From: a virus
DNA length: 53,087 bases
Reading direction: 5' to 3' (one strand)
IMG/VR virus record: IMGVR_UViG_3300032116_000283
Span: 1 to 53,087 of that record
Shown here: positions 5,105-19,353 of the stretch, one piece after another
How positions within the stretch are numbered: position 1 is the stretch's first letter
Layout: each line of letters starts with the position of its first letter
Notes under the pieces: generated by a model
What the model was told of the DNA's origin: nothing
The model's input: only the letters and a program-made list of their open reading frames with translations
Database searches by the model: none
Position numbers and translations under genes: made by a program

Positions 5105-6085
5105 ATGAGTATTTATAGCACCAACGAGTGGGATCCACTCAAAAAAGTAATTGTCGGAGTTCCCGAATATGCACAAATTCCTACAATGGATAAAAGCTTA
5201 CGGGTAGTAAATTATGCAGATAAAAAATCTGTTGATACTGTAAAATCCAGGCCTTATCCAAAACAAGTTGTAGAAGAAAGCAACGAAGATTTAGACACGT
5301 TTGTCAATTTTTTAAAAGGCGAAGGGGTAGAAGTTAAACGCCCAAACAGAGTTCCAACAGGATACTACAATTATTGTCCTAGAGACAGTGTGTTTGTTTA
5401 TAAAAACACTGCACTAGCAACTCCAATGAGTTTACGTGCTAGAGAACAAGAATTTTTACATATTGTTGAACATCTTGGTAACAATTTTACAATAGCAGAA
5501 AATTATCAAAAAGACGACATGTATAACGAAGATTGCATCGGCGATCCTGATCAACTTGCATTAACTGAAATTGCTCCTAAGTTTGATGCTGCAAATGTCA
5601 TACGTGCAAACGACCAGTTGCTTTACTTAGTAAGTAATAGTGGAAATAAAGCAGGTGCAAAATACTTACAAGAATTTGTAGGAAACGATGTTAAAGTTCA
5701 TACATTAGAAAAAGTTTATTCTTATATGCATATTGATAGCACTGTTGCATTTTTAAGAGAAGGACTTTTACTTGCAAATCCCAGTAGAATTAAAAATCGT
5801 GATATGTTACCTGCGCCGTTTAATAAATGGGACATCGTATGGGCACCAGAACCTGTTGATGTAGGTCATTATCCAGGATTGTGCAATAGCAGTATTTGGA
5901 CTTGGAATGTTAATCTGTTTAGTGTAAATCCCAATCTAGTAGTATTAGAAAAACATCAAGAACCCACACGCAAAGCATTAGAAGCACACGGTATAGAATG
6001 TGCTATGCTACCGTTACGTCATGCTAGAACGCTCGGAGGTTGTTTCCATTGTTGCACGTTAGATCTTGTACGTGAAGTTGGGTAA
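5105..6085 (+). CDS. Glycine/inosamine amidinotransferase family protein
   Basis: 326 residues of the arginine:glycine amidinotransferase family, which moves the amidino group of arginine onto an amine. It starts with NEWDPLKKVIVGVPE, the classic family start, and has PRDSVF (92-97), Asp161 in KFDAANVIR, His209 and Asp211 in MHIDST, and the nucleophilic Cys316 in GGCFHCCTLDL. These match Asp254, His303 and Cys407 of the human enzyme. The chain stops 10 residues after the Cys, slightly shorter than most members, but nothing essential seems missing. The acceptor could be glycine, another amine, or an amino-sugar/inosamine as in streptomycin synthesis (StrB1). The last possibility is attractive because a DegT-type gene lies just upstream. 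It overlaps the convergent 6059-6850 gene by 27 bases. Confidence 0.87.
   Translation: MSIYSTNEWDPLKKVIVGVPEYAQIPTMDKSLRVVNYADKKSVDTVKSRPYPKQVVEESNEDLDTFVNFLKGEGVEVKRPNRVPTGYYNYCPRDSVFVYKNTALATPMSLRAREQEFLHIVEHLGNNFTIAENYQKDDMYNEDCIGDPDQLALTEIAPKFDAANVIRANDQLLYLVSNSGNKAGAKYLQEFVGNDVKVHTLEKVYSYMHIDSTVAFLREGLLLANPSRIKNRDMLPAPFNKWDIVWAPEPVDVGHYPGLCNSSIWTWNVNLFSVNPNLVVLEKHQEPTRKALEAHGIECAMLPLRHARTLGGCFHCCTLDLVREVG
5110..5117 (-). promoter_or_regulatory. Perfect T4-type late promoter for the SGNH gene
   Basis: The minus strand reads TATAAATA inside the first codons of the divergent amidinotransferase gene. Predicted start near 5104 gives a leader of about 20 bases containing AAGGAG for the gene starting at 5084. 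Confidence 0.65.
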
Positions 6086-6850
6086 TTTCATTATTTCTAA
6101 TAACTGTTCTGCTGTACCTCTATGAAATTCCGGACCGTCGTGTCCGTTGTCTCTGGCCTTGTCAAGCGTATCTGGTACGATAGCCCATATTTTATATTTA
6201 CTTCTCTTTAATATAACTTCTAAATCATCGTCGTCCCAGGTAAAGTTTAGTACTGGAACGTTCATGGATTGCCATATATTATTAAAATTTTCAAACCACA
6301 TAAAGTTGTTTAAGTACATTTCACCTACATCAAGCAGATATCTACGCCCCCACCATACTCCATCTTTGGTCGATGGCGACGTCATGTCTCGCAATTCAAT
6401 ATGGTCATGTCTGTGAAGGCCAAATTGTTTTCTAGCTTTTTGAGGCCATTGTACAATAACCAATTTTGGAATAGGAAGTTTACTGTTTTTCCATAATGTT
6501 GCATTATAATATTGCACATCCATACCGCTTGCTTCTAAAGCACAATTGTATAAATCTAATTTGAGATCTTTAGAAACTCGATCATTCCAGATTTTATCAG
6601 TGTTTAGTCCGACACCTTCGGTATAACTACACCCAAATGTTAATAAAAAGTCTCGATTTAGGTCGCTGATTTCTTTTGTTCTATGCCCCAGACTGTTAAA
6701 TTTATAAACAATTTCGTGTTCATGATTTTTTTTAAAATCTTTAGATTGTTGTTTAAACAGGTCTTTTGAATCTGTAGAATACCAATTTAGTGTTTTATTA
6801 ACTAATTCACTTCGAAATAAAAGAGGTTTGTCATTATAAAATTCTATCAT
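6059..6850 (-). CDS. SGNH hydrolase-like protein 2
   Basis: I start this at ATG 6848-6850 (263 residues). The frame is open further upstream, but that part overlaps the divergent 6900-8249 gene and looks like its shadow. FLLTFGCSYTEGVGL (residues 68-82, Ser75) is the nucleophile block. KLVIVQWPQKARKQF is a typical middle strand, and GHDGPEFH (Asp238, His243) supplies the likely Asp-x4-His pair near the C-terminus. The family resemblance to 4305-5084 and 8218-8985 is clear in the Gly-Cys-Ser block and weak elsewhere. It probably acts on an ester-linked group of a glycan; the substrate is unknown. The 3' end overlaps the convergent amidinotransferase gene by 27 bases. Confidence 0.68.
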   Translation of the reverse strand: MIEFYNDKPLLFRSELVNKTLNWYSTDSKDLFKQQSKDFKKNHEHEIVYKFNSLGHRTKEISDLNRDFLLTFGCSYTEGVGLNTDKIWNDRVSKDLKLDLYNCALEASGMDVQYYNATLWKNSKLPIPKLVIVQWPQKARKQFGLHRHDHIELRDMTSPSTKDGVWWGRRYLLDVGEMYLNNFMWFENFNNIWQSMNVPVLNFTWDDDDLEVILKRSKYKIWAIVPDTLDKARDNGHDGPEFHRGTAEQLLEIMKLPNFTYKI

Positions 6851-6860
6851 ATTATACCTA

Positions 6861-6868
6861 CATAAATA
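6861..6868 (+). promoter_or_regulatory. Late-type promoter CATAAATA
   Basis: CATAAATA on the plus strand predicts transcription from about 6874, giving a 26-base leader. AAGGAG at 6887-6892 lies seven bases before the TTG start at 6900. Confidence 0.6.
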
Positions 6869-6899
6869 ATTTAAATTATTTAATGTAAGGAGTTTAATT

Positions 6900-8249
6900 T
6901 TGTTAACAAATTGGTTTTCATCTTTGGTTTTTTCTGCACGAGGAAAGATATTACCAATTGTTATAGATTCTAATGGCACAAAACACAATTTTTTAGAAAT
7001 TAAAAATTGTGAAGGATTAAGACATTTACTTAATGAATCTTTTTTAAAAACTGAAAAAAATCCATTTATAATATACAACGGTACACACTATATAACGCAG
7101 TTAGAAAAATTACTAGAAAAAGACCATTTTAGAAAAATTATCAGCAACGAAGAAGTTAGTTTTTATTTCTTTGAACCGCTGACTCATTACATATATAATC
7201 CCAAACGTAATCCACTATACGAACCTCATATTTTAAAAATTGACAACGAAGATCACGAAATAGAAAAAATTCGTTGCTTAGAATTAGATAGTATAGAACA
7301 TTGGGCAAGAAAAAATAATATTAAAAATTTAAAAGTATATTGCACAGATTATAAATGCTGGGAATATTATCAAAAAATATATCCTTCGCTAACATTACTT
7401 TCAATGGACTTGTTTGTTGTATGGTATTCTCAACGTCTAGGTTTAATAGAAAACAGAACTAGAATGTTCTGTTTATATAAACATGTAAACATTAAACCAA
7501 ATTTAATAACTAAAAAGTTTTGGAGCGGTGCTTGGAGGTATGATCCAAGCAGACATTTTATAACTGCATTTTTAGCAGGAAAAAATTTAATAAACAACAA
7601 CAATGTTAGTTTTTATTTTAAATTAAGCAACGAGGACATGATTTCACGTTTTTGGTTTAGTTGGAAAGAATTTTCTTTAAAATATCCTACACTATCAAAA
7701 ACATTGTTAAACGGGAATACACTGTTGCAAGAGATAGTTCCATTATCTATAGAGATTGCAAATCCAAAAACAATAGGCGAAAACGGAACCGATCCTGAAT
7801 ATGATGCTCCAGGATTTAACATTAGAAAAAGTCAAGACCCTGTGGACTCGTATTATGAAAGTTTTTGTGCTATTGTACAGGAATCTCGAGTTACACAACC
7901 GTGGCCAAATATTAGTGAAAAAACTCTCAATGCAATTAAAAATTATAGACCATTTTTAATGTGTGCTGCACCAGGAACATTACAAATGTTAAAAGATATG
8001 GGTTTTAAAACCTTTGATGCATACTGGCCAGAAGACTACGATAATATTAAATCAAACAAAGATAGGCTAGCAAGAATATGCGAAATTATTGAATATATCG
8101 ATACATTTACTATAGAAGAATTACAAAAAATGTATACCGATATGATTCCTATACTAAAACATAATAACGAAAATCTATACAATTTAAACAAATTTTACAA
8201 TGAATTAAATTCACAACTTATAGAAAATTCTGATCGTACAAACGGCTAG
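6900..8249 (+). CDS. Fucosyltransferase-like phage protein, divergent long form
   Basis: 449 residues from a TTG start, chosen because AAGGAG sits seven bases upstream and a late promoter lies just before it. The C-terminal half carries the same second block as the paralogues at 1540-2616 and 2668-3711: CAIVQESR, then SEKTLNAIKNYRPFLMCAAPG, then GFKTFDAYWPEDYD. The TEK motif is replaced by SEK. The first block is much altered, with the region around LITKKFWSGAWRYDPSRHF occupying its place. I infer a glycosyltransferase-like role by the same weak motif argument. It overlaps the convergent SGNH gene 8218-8985 by 32 bases. Confidence 0.65.
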   Translation: MLTNWFSSLVFSARGKILPIVIDSNGTKHNFLEIKNCEGLRHLLNESFLKTEKNPFIIYNGTHYITQLEKLLEKDHFRKIISNEEVSFYFFEPLTHYIYNPKRNPLYEPHILKIDNEDHEIEKIRCLELDSIEHWARKNNIKNLKVYCTDYKCWEYYQKIYPSLTLLSMDLFVVWYSQRLGLIENRTRMFCLYKHVNIKPNLITKKFWSGAWRYDPSRHFITAFLAGKNLINNNNVSFYFKLSNEDMISRFWFSWKEFSLKYPTLSKTLLNGNTLLQEIVPLSIEIANPKTIGENGTDPEYDAPGFNIRKSQDPVDSYYESFCAIVQESRVTQPWPNISEKTLNAIKNYRPFLMCAAPGTLQMLKDMGFKTFDAYWPEDYDNIKSNKDRLARICEIIEYIDTFTIEELQKMYTDMIPILKHNNENLYNLNKFYNELNSQLIENSDRTNG

Positions 8250-8985
8250 CCCAATAAGTATGAGCATCTTTTCTGTGGTGCCAATACCGTTGTCCTTCAA
8301 CACTAAAACCTGCTGCGATGCAATGTTCGAAAAATGATTCTGAAACGTCGTCAAATTTATAAAAGTTATTTGCATTAACTTTTGTTTGATAATAAGCGTA
8401 TCTATTACCAACAGCACAACTTTGAAATCCATTTCTAAAAATGTAAGGTATTTGATGTGCTTCCAAAATTGTTTGCAAGTTAATTATGTTTAGGTATCTG
8501 TTTATTTCCCAGTGTTCTTCGTTGACAAACATATAACGAGAGAGTGCATCAAGTACGTGCTTTTGTTCTTGCGGGAATGTCGGAGCATAATGATCTGCAT
8601 GAACATGTCCTACATTTCGATCAGGTACATAAGGAACAAAATGCCAATAGTGTTCAGTGTTTGCACTATTAAAAAAGATTTCAGATCTCGAACTACCAGT
8701 CCAGTGTATTAAAAATAGTGACTGCTTTGCCAACTCTAAATTATCTAAAATCCAATGAGTCGAAGATCTATTAATGTAATCATTACTGCCGCCGGGTAAA
8801 GCAATATTAGTATAATCAACACCAAGTTTATAAGCCAACTGAGCACCAAAACAGTTTTCTCTGTTATAGTTGCCTTCACCTATACCGCTACCCTCGATTT
8901 CGCTGCCAGCACTATGACTGCAACCGTTAACAAAAAGATGAGAAAAATTATATTTTTTCTTTAGGAATGATGATATCGGTACCAC
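8218..8985 (-). CDS. SGNH hydrolase-like protein 3
   Basis: 255 residues if started at GTG 8983-8985, the only reasonable start codon before the essential FVNGCSHSAG block (Ser23). AGGA lies about 11 bases upstream. The start overlaps the radical SAM gene upstream by 38 bases. The catalytic Asp/His pair may be Asp240 and His242 in RKDAHTYWASRL. PGGSNDYINR (around residues 64-73) could supply the Asn of block III. It is the last gene of the sigma70-driven minus-strand operon. The acyl group or glycan it acts on is unknown. Confidence 0.65.
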   Translation of the reverse strand: MVPISSFLKKKYNFSHLFVNGCSHSAGSEIEGSGIGEGNYNRENCFGAQLAYKLGVDYTNIALPGGSNDYINRSSTHWILDNLELAKQSLFLIHWTGSSRSEIFFNSANTEHYWHFVPYVPDRNVGHVHADHYAPTFPQEQKHVLDALSRYMFVNEEHWEINRYLNIINLQTILEAHQIPYIFRNGFQSCAVGNRYAYYQTKVNANNFYKFDDVSESFFEHCIAAGFSVEGQRYWHHRKDAHTYWASRLYDQNFL

Positions 8986-9910
8986 AGTGACAGTGTTCCT
9001 TGCTACAAATTACAGGGTTTAGATTAAACTTTAAATTTTCATTTAAGATATTTCCGTGGTTGTTTCCAACTCCACAACTAGCACTGCTAATTTGTCCAAT
9101 TGGATTGATAAACAGTGCATCATCAACCGAACAGCGCCAGCCTGCAAAAAAGTTTTGTCTTGCTGAAATAATCTTATTACTATTTACTGGCTCTACAGAA
9201 TCTGTATAATGTGCTAAACTAATTGCTCGATTTGTTCTGTAAGGTTTGGTTTTACGCATTACAGTTTCAAACTGTGCTTCTCTTAAAAACTTTTCTTTAG
9301 CAGGATCAGAGTATTTCCACGGTCCTGCATTAACACTCATTTCGTCAAATAAAGGTGTCCACTCTAAATTATAGTTCAGCACTTCATTTCTTACACGATT
9401 ACCAAATTCAACAACTTCCCAAAAGCGTTCTTCATGCATTAGCATTTTTGTGCAAAGATAATCTACTTTGTCACACAAAAATGCTGCGTTTTCAATGTAC
9501 CTATCAGGTTTAACATATTCAATATGAAAACTTGCAACTATGTCATCAAATAGATGATAGTGTTGTTCCCAATATCTCAAAGGACGACTTAGATTTGTAT
9601 TAACTGCAACAGTTAAATTATCACCTAATTCCGCTTTTAAGTATTCTGTTAGAGGAATAAAGTTTTCCCAATGTGTGGGCTCGCCGCCGCTGTAAAATAT
9701 TTTAAAATATCTGTAACCTCTGTCTTGATATTGTTGAAAGATATTTCTTACATTACGCTTATAAGAATCTAGATTACCATTGTTACGTGATGTACCACTC
9801 CAATTACCTGGGTTACAATAACTACACTGATAGTTACAAAAATTGTTTACTTGCCAAGTAAGACTCATATACTTGTCTTCGATCGGTGTTATTTTAAATA
9901 GTTCACTCAT
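8948..9910 (-). CDS. Radical SAM protein with C-terminal SPASM-like cysteines
   Basis: 320 residues. CNYQCSYC places the [4Fe-4S]/SAM ligands at Cys25, Cys29 and Cys32, and FYSGGEPTHWENF is the SAM-binding GGE motif. The C-terminus holds extra cysteines in GWRCSVDD, SASCGVGN and CSKEHCHCGTD (Cys302, 307, 309), resembling the auxiliary cluster of SPASM/twitch enzymes. In its three upstream neighbours the extra cysteines lie at the N-terminus instead. The reaction is not known; relatives modify peptides, sugars or cofactors by radical chemistry. It overlaps the preceding gene by 8 bases. Confidence 0.85.
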   Translation of the reverse strand: MSELFKITPIEDKYMSLTWQVNNFCNYQCSYCNPGNWSGTSRNNGNLDSYKRNVRNIFQQYQDRGYRYFKIFYSGGEPTHWENFIPLTEYLKAELGDNLTVAVNTNLSRPLRYWEQHYHLFDDIVASFHIEYVKPDRYIENAAFLCDKVDYLCTKMLMHEERFWEVVEFGNRVRNEVLNYNLEWTPLFDEMSVNAGPWKYSDPAKEKFLREAQFETVMRKTKPYRTNRAISLAHYTDSVEPVNSNKIISARQNFFAGWRCSVDDALFINPIGQISSASCGVGNNHGNILNENLKFNLNPVICSKEHCHCGTDIIIPKEKI

Positions 9911-11186
9911 ATTGTTTTAACCATGACATTTCAGGAAATACTGCCCAAAAGTTTTCTTTTCTATATCGATCAAGATTATTATTGTTTTCAATAAACTGCT
10001 TTAACTTTTCTTTATTCTCTGTTCCAGTATTCATAAACTGAACTACACTATCAATCTTTCCAATTACATCTTTAATTATTTCTGGCTTGTTCTTTGCTCG
10101 ATCTTTTATTTTTTCAAATGCCCAAGATTTATAATCAAGATATTTTGCTCTTAATTCGATTTTAACACTTTCCGGAACGTTGTCAATTCTCATAAAGTCT
10201 GGTCCAGTAAGCATATTAAGTCTGCAATTTTCAATATCAACTAATCCACGCTCAACCCAATCCATGTGAAAGTCCGGCCAGTTCCAGGCATTATAAAGAC
10301 TGACTGTGGGTGTTAGTTCGAAATGTACGTGAGGTACACGTTCTAACATTTCTTGTCTGTTACGTTCAATTGTATTCCATACTGTTCCGTGTCTAGAATA
10401 TTCTGCTCTATAACCATTACAGTCAAGGCTTGCGCTGACTTGAATGTCTGAAAATTCTTGCCAATAGTCTATAATAGACTTTTGCTTGTATCTAAAATTA
10501 CTAAAGTTAGTTGTATATCTTAGACGAACATCACGCTTGTTATTTTCTAGCCAATAGTCAAGAATTTGATAATGTTCGTCTGTGATAAGTGCTTCTCCGC
10601 CTGCAAAATATACTTCTTCAATGTCAGGCAAATACTTTGTTAAGTCATTCCAAAAGTTATTTTCTTTAGCAATATTAACTACAATCTTGCCATCGTTTTT
10701 TAGCATACGAGCAAGTTCGTGTTCTCCATACAAATCTTTAAATTCTTTGGCATGTTGACTGCTTAGTTCAGGTCCACAACTGCGACACTTCATATTACAG
10801 ATATTTGAAAAACGTATGTCTAAGTATGCCATGCGAAATTCATCAATACTGCCGTCGTCTTTTGTTTTTTCTACCAAGTCAAAGTGTTTTTCACCAAACC
10901 AATGGTTGTGATTTTTTCTTAGCGTCCAAATATAAGTACTATCTTCGAGTTCATAACAACGGCTACATACATCAAGTTTTTTGCCTTCCAGCATCGCCAA
11001 ACGCAATTCTTTGTATTTTTCGCTGTTCCAAACTTCTTCAATACTGTTGTCTTTTAAGTTTCCAAACGGTTGTGTACTATCGGAAATACAGCAAGGCATT
11101 GCGTTGCCATTTGGCCATACGTGCATGTGAATCCAAGGTAAAATACAAAATGCCCGATTCTTCTTTAATAATTCTTCTTTATCCAT
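9903..11186 (-). CDS. Radical SAM protein with N-terminal twitch/SPASM-like region, copy 1
   Basis: 427 residues in the reversed order seen in phage 'twitch-domain' radical SAM proteins. An N-terminal cysteine region comes first: CILPWIH with Cys14, PCC at 32-33, FGNLKDNSIEEVW, then CSRC at 74-77. The core motif follows, CNMKCRSC (Cys130, 134, 137), with YFAGGEALITDEHY as the GGE motif. It closely resembles the next gene upstream (11179-12405), with all cysteine spacings equal. The overlap of 8 bases at the upstream junction is formed by ATGGATAA. The substrate is unknown; clustering with glycosyltransferases suggests a sugar, lipid head-group or protein modification. Confidence 0.87.
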   Translation of the reverse strand: MDKEELLKKNRAFCILPWIHMHVWPNGNAMPCCISDSTQPFGNLKDNSIEEVWNSEKYKELRLAMLEGKKLDVCSRCYELEDSTYIWTLRKNHNHWFGEKHFDLVEKTKDDGSIDEFRMAYLDIRFSNICNMKCRSCGPELSSQHAKEFKDLYGEHELARMLKNDGKIVVNIAKENNFWNDLTKYLPDIEEVYFAGGEALITDEHYQILDYWLENNKRDVRLRYTTNFSNFRYKQKSIIDYWQEFSDIQVSASLDCNGYRAEYSRHGTVWNTIERNRQEMLERVPHVHFELTPTVSLYNAWNWPDFHMDWVERGLVDIENCRLNMLTGPDFMRIDNVPESVKIELRAKYLDYKSWAFEKIKDRAKNKPEIIKDVIGKIDSVVQFMNTGTENKEKLKQFIENNNNLDRYRKENFWAVFPEMSWLKQYE

Positions 11187-12405
11187 TTAACATTTCACTC
11201 AATTCTGGAAACACACTTGTAAAACTTTCTCCACGAATTTTATCACGTCTTTGTGTATGATGTGTAAACTGTTCGCGTTCTTTATCCCATTCGTCTGTTT
11301 GATTTGTAAATCTAATAGCATCTTGAATATGCATTGCTTGATACCAATCTCCAGCAATCATAAAATCATGCAAATCATTTAATTTGTCTGTTCCAAATTG
11401 CTTGATAGATTTTGGTAAAATTGTTGCAGCATAATAAGAAGGAGTTAACGCTCTATAGATGCTAATCATGTCTTTTTTACGCAACAGATCTTTTTCAATA
11501 AGATAGTTATAAAATTGATCGAGTGTTGCATAATTAAAAACACTTAGTACTGTGTTGTACTGATAGTCAATGTAATCTAAGTCTCTAATAGACTTTAAAT
11601 TAGATTCTACAACAGCCCAGTCTGTTCCGTGACGTATATATTCAGCACGTTCTCCGTAGTGATCAATACTTGCTGAGATTTCTACACGCTTAAATCTACT
11701 CCAAAGATCAAGTACGTTGTATTTTTTATATTTAAAATTACTCATATTAGTATTGTAACGAAGTGTAATATTTTTGTTTACACCTTTGCGAATCATTTCT
11801 TCAAGAATTATATAATGTTCTTCTGTAATTAGTGGCTCGCCGCCAGCAAAGTATGCTAGATCAATATTTTCAACTTGATTTTTAATTTCTTCTAAAAGTT
11901 GACCTGTACTATCGGCGTGATTTATAATTCTATAATCTTTGCTAACTGCTTCGTGTTGCTTCATTTCTTGAGCCCATTGGCTGGAAAATTCTGCACCACA
12001 AGTACGACACTTCATGTTACAGATGTTAGAAAATCTTACATCAAAGTATTTCATAGAAAATTGTGGCATACTTCCGTCACTGTTTGTTAAAGTAACTAAC
12101 TCATCAAAGTCTTTGCCAAAGTGTTCTATACTATATTTCCTAAAACTAAACGGCGAACTTTCTTCGTGTTTGTAGCAGTATGTACAAATTTTATTATTTT
12201 TGTCAGACAACATATCTAAACGCAATTGCTTCATTCGGTCATTATTAAAAATTTCAGCAAGTGAAGCATCTTTAACGTTAGCAAAAGGATCTGTATAATC
12301 AGAACTACAGCAAGGATAAACATTACCTAGCGGAGTAACATTGAGATGTATCCACGGAAACATGCAAAACGTTTTGCTCTTGTTTAATAAGTAATCTTTA
12401 TCCAT
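11179..12405 (-). CDS. Radical SAM protein with N-terminal twitch/SPASM-like region, copy 2
   Basis: 408 residues, a clear tandem paralogue of 9903-11186. Cysteines 14, 32, 33, 74 and 77 form the N-terminal metal-site region (CMFPWIH, PCC, CTYC). CNMKCRTC gives the radical SAM ligands at 129, 133 and 136, and YFAGGEPLITEEHY is the SAM-contact motif. Both copies end with a motif like SFTSVFPELSEML that recurs in the four-gene set (FPEMSWL, FPEMNDF). Its start overlaps the stop of the gene before it by the same 8-base arrangement, ATGGATAA, suggesting that the junction was duplicated along with the gene. Confidence 0.87.
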   Translation of the reverse strand: MDKDYLLNKSKTFCMFPWIHLNVTPLGNVYPCCSSDYTDPFANVKDASLAEIFNNDRMKQLRLDMLSDKNNKICTYCYKHEESSPFSFRKYSIEHFGKDFDELVTLTNSDGSMPQFSMKYFDVRFSNICNMKCRTCGAEFSSQWAQEMKQHEAVSKDYRIINHADSTGQLLEEIKNQVENIDLAYFAGGEPLITEEHYIILEEMIRKGVNKNITLRYNTNMSNFKYKKYNVLDLWSRFKRVEISASIDHYGERAEYIRHGTDWAVVESNLKSIRDLDYIDYQYNTVLSVFNYATLDQFYNYLIEKDLLRKKDMISIYRALTPSYYAATILPKSIKQFGTDKLNDLHDFMIAGDWYQAMHIQDAIRFTNQTDEWDKEREQFTHHTQRRDKIRGESFTSVFPELSEMLNG

Positions 12406-13780
12406 TTGCTGCTTGCTTACACAGTTGGAAAAAATCGTTCATTTCAGGAAAAGTAGATTCAAAATCTATGTTACGTCTACGATCTTGTTCTTTAAAGAAA
12501 TTCCAAAAGTCTTTTCTACCTTCGTGTATTTTTTCAGGAGCATATTCTGTGCTACGCATGTAATCAACTACACGTCTAAACTTTTCATATTCAAGTTCAC
12601 TAAAATGAACTTTGCTACCTTCTTGAACGTTGTCTTTGATAAACTGTAGATGCTGTTCCATATACTGCATATATCGTTCTTTAGGAAGAATATTGATGTC
12701 GTATTGTAGAGGTTCTTTTAAATAAGGTGTATCAAAATGAATACGCTGCCAACGACTGCTTTCAACATCGTTGTATTTACGACGCCATTCGAGAATTTTT
12801 TCAAGCAGAGTTTGAAACGTAGTTACACTAAAAATATTAAACGTAATCATAAATGTAACTGGAGCAGTTGTATTACGCAAAAAATAATCTAAGTTTCTTT
12901 CAAATACTTCTATGTCAAGGCCATCACGAATGTATTCAGCACGTTCATTCCAAGTGTCAACACTTGTAAATAACTTAAATTGTTTAATCTTATTTTGAGA
13001 TAGCAAACTGTTTACAGCATCAGTAAACTTTTCAAGTTGACGTTCTTTGCCGCCAAGGTTGCTGTTGACGTTTAGTTCGAGATTGGGCTTAGGATCTTGC
13101 TCTAGTAAATCAAATAGTTTGTATGTACTTTTTTGAATTGTTGGTTCGCCGCCAGTAACACGTAAAATGTTCAGAGTTTTACTAACCTCCGGCCACCATT
13201 TCCACCAAGCATGAAGATAAGGATTGTTATCTTCATCATAGACTTTAAACCAGTCAATGTCACAGCGATGATTGTTTACCATATCATACGGACCGTGCTG
13301 TCGTATTTCATTGTGAAAGCGGCTACTGGCCTTAGGATGGCAATATCCACAACGGAAGTTACATTCGTTACCAAATGAAATTTCAATATACTCAGGATTT
13401 ACGTTAAAGTCCCAAGGATTAAATTTAATTTCTTGTAGACGTTGTTCGTTATAGATACTAGCACTGCGTATGTGTCTATCACTTACGTAGTCTTTGCCCA
13501 TATTTTCAATGTTCCAGCAATATTGACAACCTTTTGGTTGTTTGCCCTCGAGCATTTCTCTACGCTCTTGCTTTTTTTGCTGTGTATTGTGTAATGCACT
13601 AGGATTGGTTAACAATTCATCTACTGAAATTTTGTGAGGGGCAGGATGATAACAACTGTGTGTTTCTCCAGTTTGCAAATAAATTGTTGTATGATGCCAT
13701 TTAGCAAAACAAAATGTTGGGCTAAAATGTCGTGTAGTAACGTCGTTTACATTTTTAATGTAATCCTGTGTTTTTGACAT
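12398..13780 (-). CDS. Radical SAM protein, divergent long copy
   Basis: 460 residues. The N-terminal region keeps single cysteines (Cys24 in CFAKWHH, Cys43 in HSCYHPAP) and CQYC at 85-88, but the PCC pair of its two neighbours is replaced. The core is CNFRCGYC (Cys140, 144, 147) with RVTGGEPTIQKSTY as the GGE motif. It has a longer inserted segment before the GGE (an aromatic stretch LHAWWKWWPEV) that may form a distinct substrate pocket. Like its neighbours it ends with a FPEM motif (residues around 445-448). Its ATG shares one base with the TAA of the glycosyltransferase gene upstream. Confidence 0.85.
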   Translation of the reverse strand: MSKTQDYIKNVNDVTTRHFSPTFCFAKWHHTTIYLQTGETHSCYHPAPHKISVDELLTNPSALHNTQQKKQERREMLEGKQPKGCQYCWNIENMGKDYVSDRHIRSASIYNEQRLQEIKFNPWDFNVNPEYIEISFGNECNFRCGYCHPKASSRFHNEIRQHGPYDMVNNHRCDIDWFKVYDEDNNPYLHAWWKWWPEVSKTLNILRVTGGEPTIQKSTYKLFDLLEQDPKPNLELNVNSNLGGKERQLEKFTDAVNSLLSQNKIKQFKLFTSVDTWNERAEYIRDGLDIEVFERNLDYFLRNTTAPVTFMITFNIFSVTTFQTLLEKILEWRRKYNDVESSRWQRIHFDTPYLKEPLQYDINILPKERYMQYMEQHLQFIKDNVQEGSKVHFSELEYEKFRRVVDYMRSTEYAPEKIHEGRKDFWNFFKEQDRRRNIDFESTFPEMNDFFQLCKQAANG

Positions 13781-14709
13781 TAATCTTCTCTATCTATGAA
13801 CTGCTGATTAGTAGTTCTTGCTGGGTTTTGATAAACGGTTTTAAAGAATTTACTTTGATCTGCTTCTAGTGGATATGCTGCAATCGGCAAATCTAGAACT
13901 GGAATAAGTACGTCTGCTAAGTCTTCACACTTACGAACAAGATTTTCTTCGTCTACTTTTTTAGTAACAGTGTTTTCCCAATACTCATTTAGCCAATCAA
14001 AGTCACGAACATTTACATAATCCCAGTCAGTAAGCATGGTTTTATAAAGGCCTTCTCTAGCACCGTATATGCCCCACATACCGTTCTCAACATCTGCGCC
14101 AACCATGAGCCAAATATAAAGTCTGTGTAGATTTTTCCAATGATTCTTTTTAAATGCTTCTACAGTCGGCTTGACACCACGGTCCAGTGCCATTTTAACA
14201 CCTTCTCTAAATCCTGCACGCCATGCTTGTTGCGGTGTAGCGTTGTTGTAGATTTCACTATAACAACTGTTCATTTGGATATATTCAAGATCCCAGCAAA
14301 AATCTACCTGTGCATGTGGATTGTTAGGATCTGCGTTTTCGTGTGTACGCATGTTCAAAACATATTCTTTTGGCCAACATTTTAGGCCGCCATTGCCATA
14401 CATTAATCCATTAATTGTATTACGGGCAGTCCAACTAATAACACACTTTTCTAGATCTCTGTTTTCGTCAAAATCAAATTCTTTTGTAAGAAATTCTTGG
14501 CTGATAACATTATCGCCGTCGACTGTGATGAATCTGTCAGTTTCGCTTAGTCTAGCACAGGCTTTGTGTGCAGCATCACTGCCTTTGACACCATGTACAC
14601 GTTTTGCCCATGGAATTTTTTTACACAAGTCTGCATAATTTTTTTCAGCGTTTGGCTCGTCATATGACAAATAAATTATATCATAGTCAAGCACTCTAAA
14701 TTTACCCAT
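13780..14709 (-). CDS. Glycosyltransferase-like protein (GT-A, DGD motif)
   Basis: 309 residues. The N-terminal half looks like a GT-A nucleotide-sugar fold: DIIYLSYDEPNAE at 10-22, an amphipathic stretch ending KGSDAAHKAC, then RFITVDGDNVI with Asp64-Gly-Asp66 as the metal/nucleotide DxD motif. ISWTARNTINGLMYGNGG follows, a signature I associate with phage proteins annotated as glycosyltransferases. The C-terminal half is helical and unassigned. There is no membrane segment. Its start overlaps the 194-residue gene by 8 bases (ATGGGTAA). It likely transfers a sugar in the same pathway as the adjacent GT8-like genes; acceptor and donor are unknown. Confidence 0.72.
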   Translation of the reverse strand: MGKFRVLDYDIIYLSYDEPNAEKNYADLCKKIPWAKRVHGVKGSDAAHKACARLSETDRFITVDGDNVISQEFLTKEFDFDENRDLEKCVISWTARNTINGLMYGNGGLKCWPKEYVLNMRTHENADPNNPHAQVDFCWDLEYIQMNSCYSEIYNNATPQQAWRAGFREGVKMALDRGVKPTVEAFKKNHWKNLHRLYIWLMVGADVENGMWGIYGAREGLYKTMLTDWDYVNVRDFDWLNEYWENTVTKKVDEENLVRKCEDLADVLIPVLDLPIAAYPLEADQSKFFKTVYQNPARTTNQQFIDRED

Positions 14710-15286
14710 TTAATACCTCATGCGAATATGTTTCTAGACGTTTTATAGTATATACACTTAATGCGTTTGGGTCAAGTTCTATTTGGTTTTCAAAGTCAAT
14801 ATGTAAATCTTGTTCAATTAGTGAATTCAATTCTATAGTTAAAAACTTTTCCAGTTGATGTGGGTCGTTGTATCGTGTAAAACTAAAGTTAAGAGATTTT
14901 GTAAAAATCATCTTTTTAGATTTAAAATTATCTCTAATGATTTCATCTAACACAATTGTCCATTTTTTATTAGGGATGTCTTGTATGATTTTGATATCAG
15001 TTCTTGCACTACTATTAGGAATTTTATATATTTGATTGTTTACATCAAACGTAAAATCTTCTTCGTTAAGTTTATGTTTTAATACATAACTTTTAGAAAC
15101 AGTATCAAACGCTACATAATAATGAAAAAAGTGTTCTTTACCAGTAATTAAATTTGCAATGTCTGCAAATTCAACTTCGACATAGTTACCTGGCTCAGTA
15201 TTAACATTTGATACCGCAGTTAAATTACCATCTTCGTCGAAGTAGACATATCGTTTAGTTGAAACATAAAGAATACTTTCAAACAT
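14702..15286 (-). CDS. Unrecognised 194-residue protein inside the modification operon
   Basis: I do not recognise this protein. It is predicted beta-rich, contains no cysteine and has no signal peptide or transmembrane segment. The first third reads like short beta strands with turns (YVYFDEDGNLTAV), and the last third is acidic and more helical. It lies between two glycosyltransferases with 8-base overlaps on both sides, so its translation should be coupled to theirs. Plausible roles are an accessory subunit, a carrier or recognition protein for the enzymes, or the substrate itself; none is supported by a motif. Confidence 0.8.
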   Translation of the reverse strand: MFESILYVSTKRYVYFDEDGNLTAVSNVNTEPGNYVEVEFADIANLITGKEHFFHYYVAFDTVSKSYVLKHKLNEEDFTFDVNNQIYKIPNSSARTDIKIIQDIPNKKWTIVLDEIIRDNFKSKKMIFTKSLNFSFTRYNDPHQLEKFLTIELNSLIEQDLHIDFENQIELDPNALSVYTIKRLETYSHEVLNG

Positions 15287-16118
15287 TTAAATATCTTTCA
15301 TAAATTTTTATAACATCATCTGTAACAAAATCTTTTTCTGTATAATGAAATATTCCGTTTTGCTTGTAATTTCCAATTTTTAGATCAAGATCATTATCTA
15401 AGTATACACCTACTTTGTCTTGCCACCGTTCACTGGTTAAGATTTTCCAATCTTGTGTATGGATCTTCATATGAGTAAAATGCGGATATGTTGCTTTGCT
15501 TGTAACACGCTCCTCACAGTCTAGTATCTTAGTTACAATTGCAGCACTAATATCTACACTGGCAAATTTTTGAAAATACTTTCCACCTGCATATTGTCCA
15601 TAAAACAGTTCCCAGTTGTTCATCACTAACTCAAGCCATTTATAAAAGTTGTGTGCTTCGTCGCTTTTTTCAAAGTAATGAAATCCACTGTATAGATTGG
15701 GCAGTTGATGATTTCTAAATGCTTTACGATAATAGATGCTAGTTAAAGGAGTTCCTCTATAGGTTTTTACGTTAGTAGTAAAAAATATCTTATAGTTTTT
15801 TAGAAAATTCCACCAATGCTCGACATTTTCAAGTACTAACATATCAGTATCTATCACAATTGTACGGTCATACGGTGTAGCATGATAAATTTTCCACCGA
15901 TTTTCTACTTTCCATTCTGATGACTGTGCAGAATCTTCCCAAGGAATACTAACAATATCATCGAACACTGCTGAATGTTTTTTGTCAAGTGTGTCGTTGG
16001 TAATAAGACAAATTTTACTGTCAGGATTGGTAGCACGAATACTTAATGCACACAAGTATGCTTGTTTTACATAGTTGTGTGTGCTGTTCTGTGCAAGCAT
16101 TGTAAAATTAACTGTCAT
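15279..16118 (-). CDS. GT8-like glycosyltransferase, copy 1
   Basis: 279 residues. YVKQAYLCALSIRATNPDSKICLITND at the N-terminus and RTIVIDTDMLVL (Asp90-Thr-Asp92) match the nucleotide-binding half and DxD motif of GT8-type (glycogenin/LPS galactosyltransferase-like) enzymes. LYSGFHYFEKSDEA and a late HFTHMKIHTQDW segment fit the acceptor half and the metal-binding His. It is paralogous to the next gene upstream (16108-16956). It probably uses a UDP-sugar in the cytoplasm. The start overlaps its neighbour by 11 bases. Confidence 0.78.
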   Translation of the reverse strand: MTVNFTMLAQNSTHNYVKQAYLCALSIRATNPDSKICLITNDTLDKKHSAVFDDIVSIPWEDSAQSSEWKVENRWKIYHATPYDRTIVIDTDMLVLENVEHWWNFLKNYKIFFTTNVKTYRGTPLTSIYYRKAFRNHQLPNLYSGFHYFEKSDEAHNFYKWLELVMNNWELFYGQYAGGKYFQKFASVDISAAIVTKILDCEERVTSKATYPHFTHMKIHTQDWKILTSERWQDKVGVYLDNDLDLKIGNYKQNGIFHYTEKDFVTDDVIKIYERYLNV

Positions 16119-16956
16119 TGTCTATTACTCTACCAAGACTAAACTTATTCATAACATGAACGTTGCTGTTTTTTATTTTTGTAGGAAAGTATTTTCCTGC
16201 TTCGTTTTCTTTTTCTAATAAAATTAAAAAATTTTCATTGTTGATTTCAACTAACAAGTCTCTGTCAATTGAATAATACATTGTACCCGGCATTGGTTTA
16301 GCAAAGTCACCTGCTTGAAATCCGTTCATCATATGAATTGCTATACTAAAAGCATGATCATTTCTAAAAACACTTGTGCGTATTTGATAAAGATTTCGAT
16401 AATGTAACCAATTTTCTTGTATGTGTTTTATTAAGTTAAAAAAAACTTTATTAGTTTCTGTTTTTCTAAAAAAAACTGCTGTTGCCCAGTAAAAATTTGG
16501 ACCAACTTCGCTGATAGAGTTAAATTCTGATACATCTCTCCATCCGGCTAAATCAAACGCATCTTGATAAATTAAAAAGTCATGTGCTTGTGTAAAACAA
16601 TTAGACAATAAATTATTTGCAATTATAAAATCTGTATCAAGTAGGAGTGTTTCGTTGTAAGGAGTTAAATCAAATACACTGCTTCTACTTGTATTTTTAA
16701 ATTCAAGATTTTTTCTAGTCCAAGATCCGTCGTAGTATTTTTTATATGTATATGAAGATTCTTTTTCTAGTTCAATAACTTTATCAAACACAGACATTGA
16801 ATCTGTGTATCTTTCATTAAGATATTGTACATTGTCTGTTATAATACTAACCGGTAAGTTTAAGTAATTTTTAATACGCTTTGCCGAAAATACTGCTTGT
16901 TTTACATAATCAACTTCGCTGTTATTTCTTGCGATAAGCAAAACACCTTTGCTCAT
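16108..16956 (-). CDS. GT8-like glycosyltransferase, copy 2
   Basis: 282 residues. It shares with 15279-16118 the opening DYVKQAVFSAKRIKNYLNLPVSIITDN and the DxD block NETLLLDTDFII (Asp107-Thr-Asp109). A later NVHVMNKFSLGR near the C-terminus supplies a candidate metal-binding His. Overall similarity to copy 1 looks moderate, so the two may use different donors or acceptors. It overlaps the 115-residue gene by ATGA. Confidence 0.76.
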   Translation of the reverse strand: MSKGVLLIARNNSEVDYVKQAVFSAKRIKNYLNLPVSIITDNVQYLNERYTDSMSVFDKVIELEKESSYTYKKYYDGSWTRKNLEFKNTSRSSVFDLTPYNETLLLDTDFIIANNLLSNCFTQAHDFLIYQDAFDLAGWRDVSEFNSISEVGPNFYWATAVFFRKTETNKVFFNLIKHIQENWLHYRNLYQIRTSVFRNDHAFSIAIHMMNGFQAGDFAKPMPGTMYYSIDRDLLVEINNENFLILLEKENEAGKYFPTKIKNSNVHVMNKFSLGRVIDNDS

Positions 16957-17300
16957 AAATCGATTATACCTTCAACTGTTCTGTTGCTTTTTAATTTGTT
17001 GTATTCAATTAAATATTTGTTGGTTGCTGCAAAGTAAACACCAACGATACTTTTGGTAAATTCAAACAACTCTTCAATTTCTACTGGTATTCCGTTATCA
17101 TCAACTAGGATTGTTTCAGTTTGCTTTAAAGCAATAAGTGCTTGACAGAAACTAACTAACTCTTGTTTTACTGTAAACTGGCCACCGTTGAAATAATATA
17201 CAATATCATTTTGATATTGTTCTTTTAAAACACGTTTTTGATTGTTTAGTGTGATCATATAATTACTAAAATCAAGTGCTTGTTTTAGTTTTTCGTCCAT
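16953..17300 (-). CDS. Conserved small phage protein, first gene of the operon
   Basis: 115 residues, mostly helical with a short beta hairpin (IVYYFNGGQFTV, then ETILVDDNGIPVEIEEL). The pattern of N-terminal helix, YYFNGG turn, helix, DDNGIPV hairpin and helix with a terminal acidic Ile-Ile-Asp-Leu resembles a small protein I have seen widely in marine T4-like phages, without a known function. It is the first gene after the sigma70 promoter, with AGGAGT five bases before its ATG, so it should be the most strongly expressed member of the unit. Role unknown. Confidence 0.8.
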   Translation of the reverse strand: MDEKLKQALDFSNYMITLNNQKRVLKEQYQNDIVYYFNGGQFTVKQELVSFCQALIALKQTETILVDDNGIPVEIEELFEFTKSIVGVYFAATNKYLIEYNKLKSNRTVEGIIDL

Positions 17301-17322: not shown

Positions 17323-17351
17323 ATAATACGACATTTTTTAATATTTGTCAA
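17323..17351 (-). promoter_or_regulatory. Consensus sigma70 promoter of the accessory operon
   Basis: On the minus strand TTGACA (17346-17351) and TATTAT (17323-17328) are separated by exactly 17 bases. The transcript should start near 17316, giving a 16-base leader with AGGAGT at 17306-17311. This marks the 8218-17300 genes as readable by unmodified host polymerase, so probably early. Confidence 0.88.
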
Positions 17352-17357
17352 ATAATT

Positions 17358-18386
17358 TTAAGCAGGAGGAGTTAAATTGTCACTGGTAAGTGCAATTGCT
17401 GTTGCTAGTGTCGGGGCTGCCAAACTAACTGCGGTATACGATGCTGAGTTATATATAAACGAACTGTTTGGTCTACCAGTGTTAACTGTGCTAGTTGTTG
17501 TACCAGTTACTGGTTCGTCAATTGGAGTTCCACCAACTGGACTTCCTGCATTAGTACCAGTATCACCGTCATTGAATTCAATTCTAAATCTCAATGTTGA
17601 TCCAGAAAGTAACCCAGATATAGTATAATCGTTGTCTGCATATACTCCAGATCCTGCTTTAATAAACAACTGTCTGTAACTAGATGTTAAACTGCTAAAA
17701 CCGCTGCCTCCAGAACCAGCCGGAGTTGGGGTACCAGATGATGCTGTTATTCTAAATTTATTAAATGTAATAGTACCCATTGCACTTAGCAAACCTTGCC
17801 AGTCTGTGTCTTTTGATCCACTGCCGCCAGTTAGACTAGCAGTAAAACGTATTTCACCACCTGCATTAAAATAAAAATTCATTGCGTTAACAGTAGGAAA
17901 TGTTACAGTTACTACATGATAAATGCTTTCAACCTGGCCTGTGCCGCCCCACTGAGTACTTCGTGAACTGTTAAGCGGTGTTCCTGGGCTAAAACTAGTT
18001 ATTGAAAACCCAGTTACACTAGGATCAAAGTTACTCACAGTGTTTATTAACGACTCGTAATCATTAATACCTTGTATTGTACCGTCAGCCGGTGTTGCTT
18101 TTGCACCTGTAGTTTGGTTAAAAGTTTGAGACTGATTTGCACCAACAGTTTGTCCTGTTGGCGGTACTGCAACAGTGGTGCTTACACTACCAACTTGATG
18201 CACATACGTTCCTTGTGCATCGAGAAATAGATCTAGCATCTGTTCAGAGGTAACCGAGTCAACTGTGGCTGCAACTGTTGTAGACCTCATGGTCTGTCCA
18301 TATTGTGTTGCATAGATACTGGACAAAGTACTTCTGATTGAATTATAAGAACTAGCTGTTAAAGAGGATCCGGTTGATACAGGCAT
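17358..18386 (-). CDS. Virion structural protein, paralogue A
   Basis: 342 residues, rich in Ser, Thr and Gly and low in charge, as in fibrous virion proteins. It is paralogous to 18424-19353. The shared elements are an N-terminal helix of the type SYNSIRSTLSSIYATQYGQ, the YVHQVGS motif, and a central block NAGGEIRF followed by DTDWQGLLSAMGTI and ITASSGT. Proteins of this kind lie beside tail fibres in marine T4-like phages and are detected as structural. The exact location is unknown. AGGAG precedes its ATG. It is the last gene of the leftward late block. Confidence 0.7.
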   Translation of the reverse strand: MPVSTGSSLTASSYNSIRSTLSSIYATQYGQTMRSTTVAATVDSVTSEQMLDLFLDAQGTYVHQVGSVSTTVAVPPTGQTVGANQSQTFNQTTGAKATPADGTIQGINDYESLINTVSNFDPSVTGFSITSFSPGTPLNSSRSTQWGGTGQVESIYHVVTVTFPTVNAMNFYFNAGGEIRFTASLTGGSGSKDTDWQGLLSAMGTITFNKFRITASSGTPTPAGSGGSGFSSLTSSYRQLFIKAGSGVYADNDYTISGLLSGSTLRFRIEFNDGDTGTNAGSPVGGTPIDEPVTGTTTSTVNTGRPNSSFIYNSASYTAVSLAAPTLATAIALTSDNLTPPA

Positions 18387-18423: not shown

Positions 18424-19353
18424 TTACAAACTTTGTATAGTTTGATATGCAGGAGAAGGCACTGACACATAAGAACCAGTTGCTCTGTATTGAGATATCG
18501 AACTTAACAACGTACCTTCGACTGGCTCGTCAACGTTGTTACTTAGATCATCGGTGAATTCAACTAAGAATGTAACAACTCCTGATGTTTGATCGCCCTT
18601 GGCTTTAACTACAAATGTGTTACCTGTATAAACACTTGTACCAGATTTTGTATAAAGTGTTTGATACGTACTTGTTAAGTCAAAGTTACCTAAACTAGAC
18701 GATATACCAGAACTTGCAGTAACAGTTGTATAGTTAAATCTCAAAGTTCCAATTGACTGTAATAGATTTTGCCAATCAATAAATTTTGAAGTAGACGAAG
18801 GAGGGCTGGAAATTGATGGTACAATTCTTATTTCGCCGCCGCTGTTAAAGAAATGTCTTCTGTGATCTGCGGCAGTGGCTGTACCCGATGTTCCATCCGA
18901 ATTTATAACAGTATAACCACCAGTAAATGTTACAGTAAATTCATGACGCACTGTTTGAGGTTGCGATGCGCCACCCCACGCTGATGTACGCTGACTACTT
19001 AACTTATTTTCTACTGTTGCTTGTGACGAGTCTAATGCAAATCTATTAATTTCTGCATAAACAAACGTTGAAATATTTTCGTATTGAGCATAAACTGTAT
19101 CTGTTATTTCGTCTGCGGAAGCAACAATACTCGTTAGGGTAGGAAGACTTCCTGTTTGGTGTACATATGCTTTTTCTAAATCAGATTTTAAATTTTGCAT
19201 GTGTAGAGCATTAACAGTATTTGTTGTTGCTACTGTTGTGCTAACTGGTCTTTGTCCATATCCTAAATTTCCGCTGCCGTTGCCTAAAACAGCAATTGCC
19301 TTTGCTTGCATACTATTGTATCGCGCTGCGGTAATTATCTCTCCAACTGCCAT
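18424..19353 (-). CDS. Virion structural protein, paralogue B
   Basis: 309 residues, sharing with 17358-18386 the start AARYNSMQAKAIAVLG, the AYVHQTGS motif, and the central NSGGEIRI, then IDWQNLLQSIGTLRF and VTASSG. Ser/Thr-rich beta-type sequence suggests a trimeric or fibrous assembly. It has its own perfect late promoter (19380-19387), consistent with a late structural role. Tandem duplication is evident. I cannot say whether it belongs to the fibre, baseplate or neck. Confidence 0.72.
   Translation of the reverse strand: MAVGEIITAARYNSMQAKAIAVLGNGSGNLGYGQRPVSTTVATTNTVNALHMQNLKSDLEKAYVHQTGSLPTLTSIVASADEITDTVYAQYENISTFVYAEINRFALDSSQATVENKLSSQRTSAWGGASQPQTVRHEFTVTFTGGYTVINSDGTSGTATAADHRRHFFNSGGEIRIVPSISSPPSSTSKFIDWQNLLQSIGTLRFNYTTVTASSGISSSLGNFDLTSTYQTLYTKSGTSVYTGNTFVVKAKGDQTSGVVTFLVEFTDDLSNNVDEPVEGTLLSSISQYRATGSYVSVPSPAYQTIQSL

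What the first reader, a model, noticed from the sequence alone, without database searches (positions are those of the whole stretch)
8218..17300. Early operon of four radical SAM and three glycosyltransferase-like proteins: candidate undescribed modification system
Ten overlapping genes sit behind one consensus sigma70 promoter: a small conserved protein, two GT8-like and one DGD-motif transferase, an unknown beta-rich protein, three radical SAM proteins with an N-terminal cysteine-rich twitch-like region, a fourth with the cysteines at the C-terminus, and an SGNH hydrolase. Such a density of radical chemistry plus glycosyl transfer in a lytic phage, expressed without the phage late sigma, suggests alteration of the host envelope or of a protein during infection, not a virion part.
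Basis: partly seen in the sequence, partly recalled or inferred. Interest (0 to 1): 0.78.

Follow-up and report, generated by a model that had tools for sequence, protein, structure and literature searches.

The report
Tail-fibre-linked sugar and radical enzyme cassette
Uncultivated aquatic phages carry, directly behind their tail-fibre genes, a fixed set of sugar-transferring enzymes, here followed by four radical-chemistry enzymes, which probably build and remodel a sugar decoration on the phage's own fibre or on the host surface it recognises.

Summary

The operon is a composite. sml-GT1-GT2-bet-GT3 follows tail-fibre genes in 79 of 82 scorable GT1 loci, and likewise when relatives are fetched by sml or by the fibre. 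The fibre's homologue in phage PA5oct carries a mass-spectrometry note, and PA5oct lacks the module there. The radical SAM run rS1...rS4 is ordered (58 of 61 distinct rS4 loci) but accessory: only 5 of 56 GT3 loci with enough downstream sequence have it directly behind GT3, and it also occurs with GT3 alone or without GTs.

sml resembles DUF4376 tail-fibre chaperones by fold only and co-diverges with the GTs rather than the fibre. The sigma70-type promoter is conserved (77 of 119), but the last fibre gene has one too in 18 of 60 phages, so 'sigma70, hence not virion' fails.

Best reading: fibre-linked glycan building with optional radical tailoring; fibre or host receptor as acceptor is undecided. 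New variant of a known kind.

The parts
17323..17351 (-). sigma70-type promoter TTGACA-17-TATTAT
   Evidence: conserved at 11 of 12 or better in 77 of 119 relatives
16953..17300 (-). sml: 115-aa protein, predicted fold like DUF4376 (tail-fibre chaperone family)
   Evidence: AF2 pLDDT 92.8; BFVD matches; no Pfam DUF4376 match
16108..16956 (-). GT1: GT8-like glycosyltransferase
   Evidence: hhalign to GT2 E 6.7e-26; D107 and D109 invariant in 100 relatives
15279..16118 (-). GT2: GT8-like glycosyltransferase
   Evidence: profile to glycogenin E 0.0018
14702..15286 (-). bet: protein of unknown function between GT2 and GT3
   Evidence: no family match above a cut-off
13780..14709 (-). GT3: DGD-motif protein, probable GT-A-fold transferase
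12398..13780 (-). rS1: radical SAM, N-terminal twitch
   Evidence: NF033640 311 bits; clade 100/100
11179..12405 (-). rS2: radical SAM, N-terminal twitch
   Evidence: NF033640 383 bits
9903..11186 (-). rS3: radical SAM, N-terminal twitch
   Evidence: NF033640 384 bits
8948..9910 (-). rS4: radical SAM with C-terminal cysteine cluster
   Evidence: Pfam PF04055 32.0 bits; C260, C279, C302, C307, C309 invariant in 74 relatives
8218..8985 (-). DUF6071 protein (SGNH-like by motif, recalled)
   Evidence: Pfam 41.8 bits, cut-off 27
17358..18386 (-). tf1: last fibre-like gene, 29.8% Ser+Thr
   Evidence: no PHROG match
18424..19353 (-). tf2: fibre-like gene, homologue of PA5oct gp360 (record note ESI-MS/MS)
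   Evidence: no PHROG match

Best explanation
A fibre-linked glycan cassette. The small DUF4376-like protein and the transferases GT1, GT2 and GT3 (with bet) build a short glycan in connection with the receptor-binding machinery, most likely on the Ser/Thr-rich terminal fibre proteins tf1/tf2. The four radical SAM enzymes (probably with the DUF6071 protein) are an optional tailoring line, entering through GT3, that oxidises, epimerises or deoxygenates that glycan or its acceptor. Shown here: gene content, conserved catalytic residues, locking of the core to fibre genes, the ordered but separable radical run, promoter conservation. Inferred: acceptor, chemistry, timing.
For: Linkage holds in three independent fetches. 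Of 82 distinct GT1 loci with two genes upstream, 79 read fibre then sml. Of 49 distinct sml found with an sml query, 48 follow a fibre gene (the other is at a contig end) and 47 precede GT1 (two at ends). Of 11 loci found with a fibre query, 11 carry sml-GT1 behind the fibre, four of them with a fibre identical to the window's. It survives fibre divergence: mean distance of the last fibre 0.65 in 65 loci. tf1 and tf2 have the highest Ser+Thr of 34 window proteins, 29.8% and 26.2%. Sugar chemistry is next door: StrB1-like amidinotransferase, E 1e-64, epimerase and DegT.
Against: sml co-diverges with the GTs (r 0.84-0.89) more than with the last fibre (0.68; partial -0.29), unlike a dedicated fibre chaperone. 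The operon has its own sigma70-type promoter, while tf3 has late-type motifs in 82 of 96. GT3 with the radical run also occurs without GT2 or bet in front (for example L144, L146, L188, L192), and GT3-GT3'-radical SAM lies on a Bdellovibrionia contig of 493,600 bases with no fibre hit in the 19.9 kb read and no sml in that genome: GT3 and radical chemistry do not need a fibre. Only 5 of 56 GT3-scan loci with at least 6.5 kb after GT3 have the full radical run there. Fibres are Ser/Thr-rich anyway. tf1/tf2 have no PHROG match. The loci are best-scoring hits, not a random sample. The GT3 fold match has low TM-scores.
Confidence: 0.4

Rival explanations
1. Host-receptor alteration: the transferases and radical enzymes change the LPS or other surface glycan that the neighbouring fibres recognise, excluding further phages and sparing progeny from binding debris. 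Fibre and receptor-modifying genes travel together because they must match.
For: Sigma70-type promoter conserved in 77 of 119; the pelagimyophage authors favour O-chain modification for GT8 genes in their host recognition cluster (PMC7029224, passages); sugar-metabolism genes adjoin; GT3 plus radical SAM exist in Bdellovibrionia genomes.
Against: A DUF4376-like protein opens the operon, directly behind the fibre gene; the fibre gene itself can have a sigma70 promoter; no membrane or flippase-like protein among the ten (highest 19-residue hydropathy 1.41).
Confidence: 0.35
2. Modification of phage or host DNA or another intracellular target (for example hypermodified bases) by the transferases and radical enzymes.
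For: Phage glycosyltransferases that modify DNA are known (references listed in PMC12619734, passage); the operon has a host-type promoter.
Against: Locked to fibre genes; none of the ten matched a nucleotide-modifying family above a curated cut-off in Pfam or NCBIfam.
Confidence: 0.1
3. A peptide (RiPP-like) or antiviral small-molecule pathway, with sml as precursor, or the radical enzymes as viperin-like nucleotide makers.
For: Radical SAM with auxiliary Fe-S domains often act on peptides (recalled); GT3's best fold hits are glycocin transferases SunS/ThuS; partial pVip and viperin matches, at most 34.3 bits.
Against: sml is predicted well folded (pLDDT 92.8) and 115 aa long; viperin cut-off 180 bits not met; NCBIfam RiPP maturase models far below their cut-offs.
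Confidence: 0.07

Closest known systems
Pelagimyophage 'host recognition cluster' (PMC7029224; passages read)
   Same: Hypervariable island with tail fibres, GT8-type glycosyltransferases and radical SAM gene cassettes in T4-like marine phages
   Different: Read there as O-chain modification. A DUF4376-like protein, a fixed sml-GT1-GT2-bet-GT3 core, an ordered radical SAM run and a conserved sigma70 promoter are not in the passages read. The window's gp6 is nearest to jumbo phages such as Phosso, Atu_ph07, SCTP-2 and PA5oct
T4-like environmental genome with 12 radical SAM genes (PMC5332604; passages)
   Same: Many radical SAM genes in one T4-like aquatic phage
   Different: Discussed there as Fe-S metabolism; no gene order or fibre link in the passages read
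Alteromonas phage V22 gp26/gp27, fibre and DUF4376 chaperone (PMC7289586; passages)
   Same: Fibre gene followed directly by a DUF4376-type protein
   Different: sml lacks a DUF4376 sequence match; transferases follow it; co-divergence with the fibre is not seen
Mycobacteriophage virion glycosylation (cited in PMC12619734, passage read; original paper not read)
   Same: Glycans on virion proteins of phages
   Different: Capsid and tail tube there, not fibres; no radical SAM set mentioned in the passage
Pseudomonas phages PA5oct and Paride, fibre cluster
   Same: PA5oct: collinear gp25-gp6-giant protein-t206-fibres; Paride: tf2 homologue and the same gene layout by annotation
   Different: Behind the last fibre comes a convergent gene, and no sml or GT was detected in the PA5oct genes tested

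Membership tests
N_Twi_rSAM (NF033640) | score above the curated cut-off of 170 bits, rS1-rS3 | tested here: met
   311, 383, 384 bits
N_Twi_rSAM (NF033640) | same, for rS4 | tested here: not met
   37.6 bits; rS4 is filed only as radical SAM with a C-terminal cysteine cluster
Radical SAM superfamily | CxxxCxxC in all four proteins | tested here: met
   all three cysteines 100% conserved in 74 to 120 relatives per family
Radical SAM superfamily | Pfam PF04055 gathering score 29.5 | tested here: inconclusive
   rS2 43.0 and rS4 32.0 pass; rS1 29.1 and rS3 13.5 do not
GT8 glycosyltransferases | profile similarity and DxD motif | tested here: inconclusive
   GT2 to glycogenin E 0.0018; no Pfam hit; D107 and D109 invariant in GT1, of GT2's motif only D92 invariant
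GT-A fold transferase (GT3) | fold match to solved GT-A enzymes | tested here: inconclusive
   Foldseek E 5e-5 to SunS, TM about 0.3, model pLDDT 78
DUF4376 tail-fibre chaperone (sml) | fold | tested here: met
   9 of 12 BFVD hits with E <= 1e-3 are named DUF4376; the best hit is an uncharacterised protein
DUF4376 tail-fibre chaperone (sml) | Pfam sequence match | tested here: not met
   no DUF4376 match at E <= 1
DUF4376 tail-fibre chaperone (sml) | gene directly behind a fibre gene | tested here: met
   48 of 49 distinct sml, the other at a contig end
DUF4376 tail-fibre chaperone (sml) | co-divergence with the fibre | tested here: not met
   partial correlation -0.29 over 65 loci
Gtr serotype-conversion operon | membrane-embedded GtrA/GtrC-type proteins (recalled definition) | tested here: not met
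   highest 19-residue hydropathy 1.41 in the ten proteins
Prokaryotic viperin | NF038283 cut-off 180 bits | tested here: not met
   best 34.3 bits; PADLOC pVip at most 32.8 bits
Pelagimyophage host recognition cluster | position between VrlC and gp14 in a pelagimyophage genome | not tested
   the record ends before a neck gene could be placed; no comparison with a pelagimyophage genome was run

The most novel reading that the evidence does not exclude
A phage-encoded assembly line in which up to four radical SAM enzymes rewrite a glycan that three phage glycosyltransferases attach to its own receptor-binding fibre: radical-chemistry tailoring of a virion adhesin, widening fibre chemistry beyond the genetic code. 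Relatives of GT3 and the radical enzymes in Bdellovibrionia would then act on those bacteria's own surface molecules.
Probability: 0.18. Interest if true: 0.88.

Novelty: new variant of a known kind. Interest (0 to 1): 0.58.

Why it matters
Sugar-transferring and radical SAM genes are reported in aquatic phage genomes without a tested role. This analysis splits them into a defined core physically tied to the receptor-binding fibre and an ordered, separable radical run, with an isolate (PA5oct) that has the fibre cluster without the cassette. That makes the question 'fibre or receptor?' directly testable by co-expression and mass spectrometry, and it points to unexplored radical chemistry on glycans or adhesins.

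Tried and rejected
Isolate phage relatives: megablast of the operon, no match. tblastn of rS2, 23 Vibrio phage records at 22-25%; rS1, 2 records at 28.6% over 34% of the query; GT2, one partial hit; window GT3 and rS4, and the divergent sml, GT3 and fibre relatives from L033 and L067, no match.

PDB sequence searches with GT1, GT3 and sml gave nothing usable; the PDB fold search with sml gave no hit better than E 0.15. A fibre-sml fusion in PA5oct gp360 (its C-terminal extension is about the size of sml) was rejected: no sml match. Viperin and RiPP readings: see rivals. Mirror-tree correlations were meant to support the chaperone role and did not. The view that the radical quartet regularly accompanies the GT core was rejected on recount: 5 of 56 GT3-scan loci; odds for the best explanation were lowered from 0.42 to 0.40 for that and for GT3 apart from the core. 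Papers: phrases on glycosylated tail fibres, 0 papers; twitch-phage phrases, nothing on phages by title or abstract. The PA5oct paper is not held, so the mass-spectrometry statement rests on notes in the sequence record.

An expression-timing claim was rejected: a promoter is not a transcript. The 38 of 204 GT3 upstreams and 17 of 45 tf1-labelled upstreams with strong sigma70 sites: the second was followed, the first was not; they may be second GT3 copies outside the core. Family labels in synteny calls are best-hit labels of profiles built here, and paralogues (rS1-rS3, tf1-tf2, GT3 copies) can be mislabelled.
Full report
Observation. The window is a 53,087-base virus record. The ten ORFs lie on the minus strand between 17300 and 8218 and overlap end to end by 1 to 38 nt. 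The promoter is at 17351..17323. rS1-rS3 pass NF033640 (311, 383, 384 bits; cut-off 170); rS4 does not (37.6) but passes Pfam Radical_SAM (32.0; cut-off 29.5); the last ORF is DUF6071. CxxxCxxC and auxiliary cysteines are 98-100% conserved in 74 to 120 relatives per family. GT2 resembles glycogenin (E 0.0018), and GT1 is its distant paralogue (E 6.7e-26). GT3's model (pLDDT 78) hits GT-A enzymes, best SunS/ThuS, at E 5e-5 with TM-scores near 0.3, so only the fold class is suggested.

Neighbourhood. Upstream lie fibre and baseplate genes: tf3-tf5, gp6, gp25 and gp5 have tail PHROG matches; tf1 and tf2 have none. Downstream the operon meets a convergent ORF. Sugar-metabolism genes follow: an epimerase and a short DegT and a StrB1-like amidinotransferase (PDB 1bwd, E 1.1e-64). 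The nearest isolate relatives of gp6 are jumbo phages.

Relatives. Counts below are therefore on best-scoring subsets. The rS4 scan of genome contigs gave 5 loci: one Rhodobacteraceae MAG contig that carries fibre, sml and GTs and so looks like phage DNA, one Deltaproteobacteria MAG, and three Bdellovibrionia/Bdellovibrionales MAGs.

Fibre-locked core. After removing identical GT1 proteins, 107 loci remain. 21 have no gene upstream in the locus and 4 only sml. Of the other 82, 79 read fibre-sml, 2 unassigned-sml, and 1 fibre then an unassigned reverse ORF. Downstream, 83 of 107 read GT2-bet-GT3, 19 have an unassigned ORF in the place of bet, and 5 differ. The sml scan gives a fibre gene before 48 of 49 (1 contig end) and GT1 after 47 of 49 (2 ends). 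The fibre scan gives sml-GT1 in 11 of 11, four with a fibre identical to the window's.

Radical run. After removing identical rS4 sets, 58 of 61 rS4-scan loci hold a run that begins with rS1 and ends with rS4: 26 read rS1-rS2-rS2-rS3-rS4, 18 exactly rS1-rS2-rS3-rS4, 6 with three rS2, 2 with an extra rS3, 6 with one other gene inserted; two of the three misses begin inside the block. GT3 stands directly before rS1, or with one unassigned ORF between, in 52 of 61. The run is accessory to the core. In the GT3 scan rS1 is the gene after the first GT3 in 44 of 79 loci with a next gene, but only 5 of 56 loci with at least 6.5 kb after GT3 carry the whole run there. 14 of 107 GT1 loci show no radical SAM gene, with 2 to 13 kb read downstream, so some may be truncated. 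The run also occurs with other genes before it (L026-L028, L171, L175, L180, L193) and with GT3 but no GT2 or bet in front (L144, L146, L188, L192). GT3 thus links the two halves. A tree of 88 radical SAM proteins puts rS1 in one clade (100/100) that includes Bdellovibrionota; the main rS3 (19 rows, 100/99) and rS2 (27 rows, 100/100) groups are clades, with a few long-branched rows outside. The three N-twitch enzymes of the window are therefore long-separated lines, which argues for separate roles.

Empty site. The window fibre tf2 matches 4 of 50,697 phage records, all Pseudomonas jumbo phages, over 308 of 309 residues (29%, E 2e-3 to 7e-3). In the related PA5oct, gp353 to gp360 are collinear with window gp25, gp6, giant protein, t206 and fibres (best-pair blastp E 2e-13 to 1e-166; tf2 profile to gp360 E 1.5e-40). 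So the fibre relatives are virion proteins as far as a record note shows, and the cassette is an addition at the end of the fibre cluster.

sml. The model (pLDDT 92.8) has no solved-structure match better than E 0.15. Of 12 viral models with E <= 1e-3, 9 are named DUF4376. DUF4376 proteins of Alteromonas phages V22 and A5 are described as tail-fibre chaperones (PMC7289586, PMC10579305; passages). Against this, sml has no Pfam DUF4376 match, and across 65 loci its distances follow GT2, GT1 and GT3 (0.89, 0.85, 0.84) rather than the last fibre (0.68, partial -0.29). Linkage and fibre recombination confound the test, but it weakens the chaperone reading.

Promoter. Of 119 distinct sml upstreams, 77 score at least 11 of 12 (0.3% of shuffles), 76 of them with a 17-base spacer; the spacers are 39% alike. 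tf3, tf4, tf2 and t206 have 0 of 96, 0 of 106, 1 of 118 and 0 of 13; GT1, GT2, bet, rS1-rS4 and the DUF6071 gene have 0 or 1 each; GT3 has 38 of 204 and tf1 17 of 45. Late-type motifs stand before sml in 16 of 119 (8.7% in shuffles), 1 of them together with a strong sigma70 site (Fisher p 2.9e-7); 27 of 119 have neither. In 18 of 60 distinct phages the last of two adjacent fibre-like genes itself has an 11-12/12 sigma70 site. The promoter is real by conservation, but it does not separate virion from non-virion genes.

Cellular relatives. Bdellovibrionia MAG genomes G002 and G003 have 31 and 33 NF033640 matches at E <= 0.001, of which 13 over the cut-off lie within 29 kb of G003 contig C1. G003 contig C7 (493,600 bases) carries GT3-GT3'-radical SAM with no fibre hit in the 19.9 kb read, and no sml was found in that genome. 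GT3 and radical SAM chemistry can therefore serve another acceptor, which keeps the host-surface rival strong.

Verdict. Membership is met for N_Twi_rSAM (three proteins) and radical SAM by motif (four), inconclusive for GT8 and GT-A, and mixed for DUF4376. A published frame exists: glycosyltransferases and radical SAM cassettes in pelagimyophage host-recognition clusters, read as O-chain modification (PMC7029224, passages), and a T4-like genome with 12 radical SAM genes (PMC5332604, passages). I found no paper describing the fixed core or the radical run in searches (listings, plus the passages named); the library lacks most subscription journals. Most likely: glycan building with optional radical tailoring, tied to the receptor-binding fibre (0.40 with the fibre as acceptor, 0.35 with the host receptor).

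Noticed in passing
window 5105-6085 (+), 3735-4322 (+), 563-1474 (-): StrB1-like inosamine-phosphate amidinotransferase (PDB 1bwd, E 1.1e-64) near a short (195 aa) DegT aminotransferase and an epimerase: an aminocyclitol- or guanidino-sugar-like gene set in a phage, with counterparts in several relatives.
   Followed up: partly
G003:C1:738000-777000 (L291, L292): Bdellovibrionia MAG with 33 NF033640 matches, 13 over the cut-off within 29 kb, in a cluster that also holds an amidinotransferase-like gene.
   Followed up: partly
L027:5622-7841, L009:13466-15592, L019:5060-5842: A B12-binding radical SAM protein (L027, Pfam), a look-alike in L009 (judged by eye from its start) and a NeuB-family protein (L019) near the block in relatives.
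   Followed up: no
window 25310-39178 (-): A 4622-aa gene, homologous in pieces to PA5oct gp355 (3857 aa), annotated there as a virion structural protein.
   Followed up: partly
window 6059-7078 (-) and 6900-8249 (+): Opposite-strand ORFs overlapping by 179 nt, both with TTG starts in the mechanical listing; the true starts may be internal.
   Followed up: no
L008, L009, L075, L093 and 14 others: Near-perfect sigma70 promoters directly before a tail-fibre-like gene, unexpected for a structural gene of a T4-like phage.
   Followed up: partly
L162, L179, L043: The block lies in virus contigs of 364, 335 and 275 kb, so some carriers are jumbo phages.
   Followed up: no
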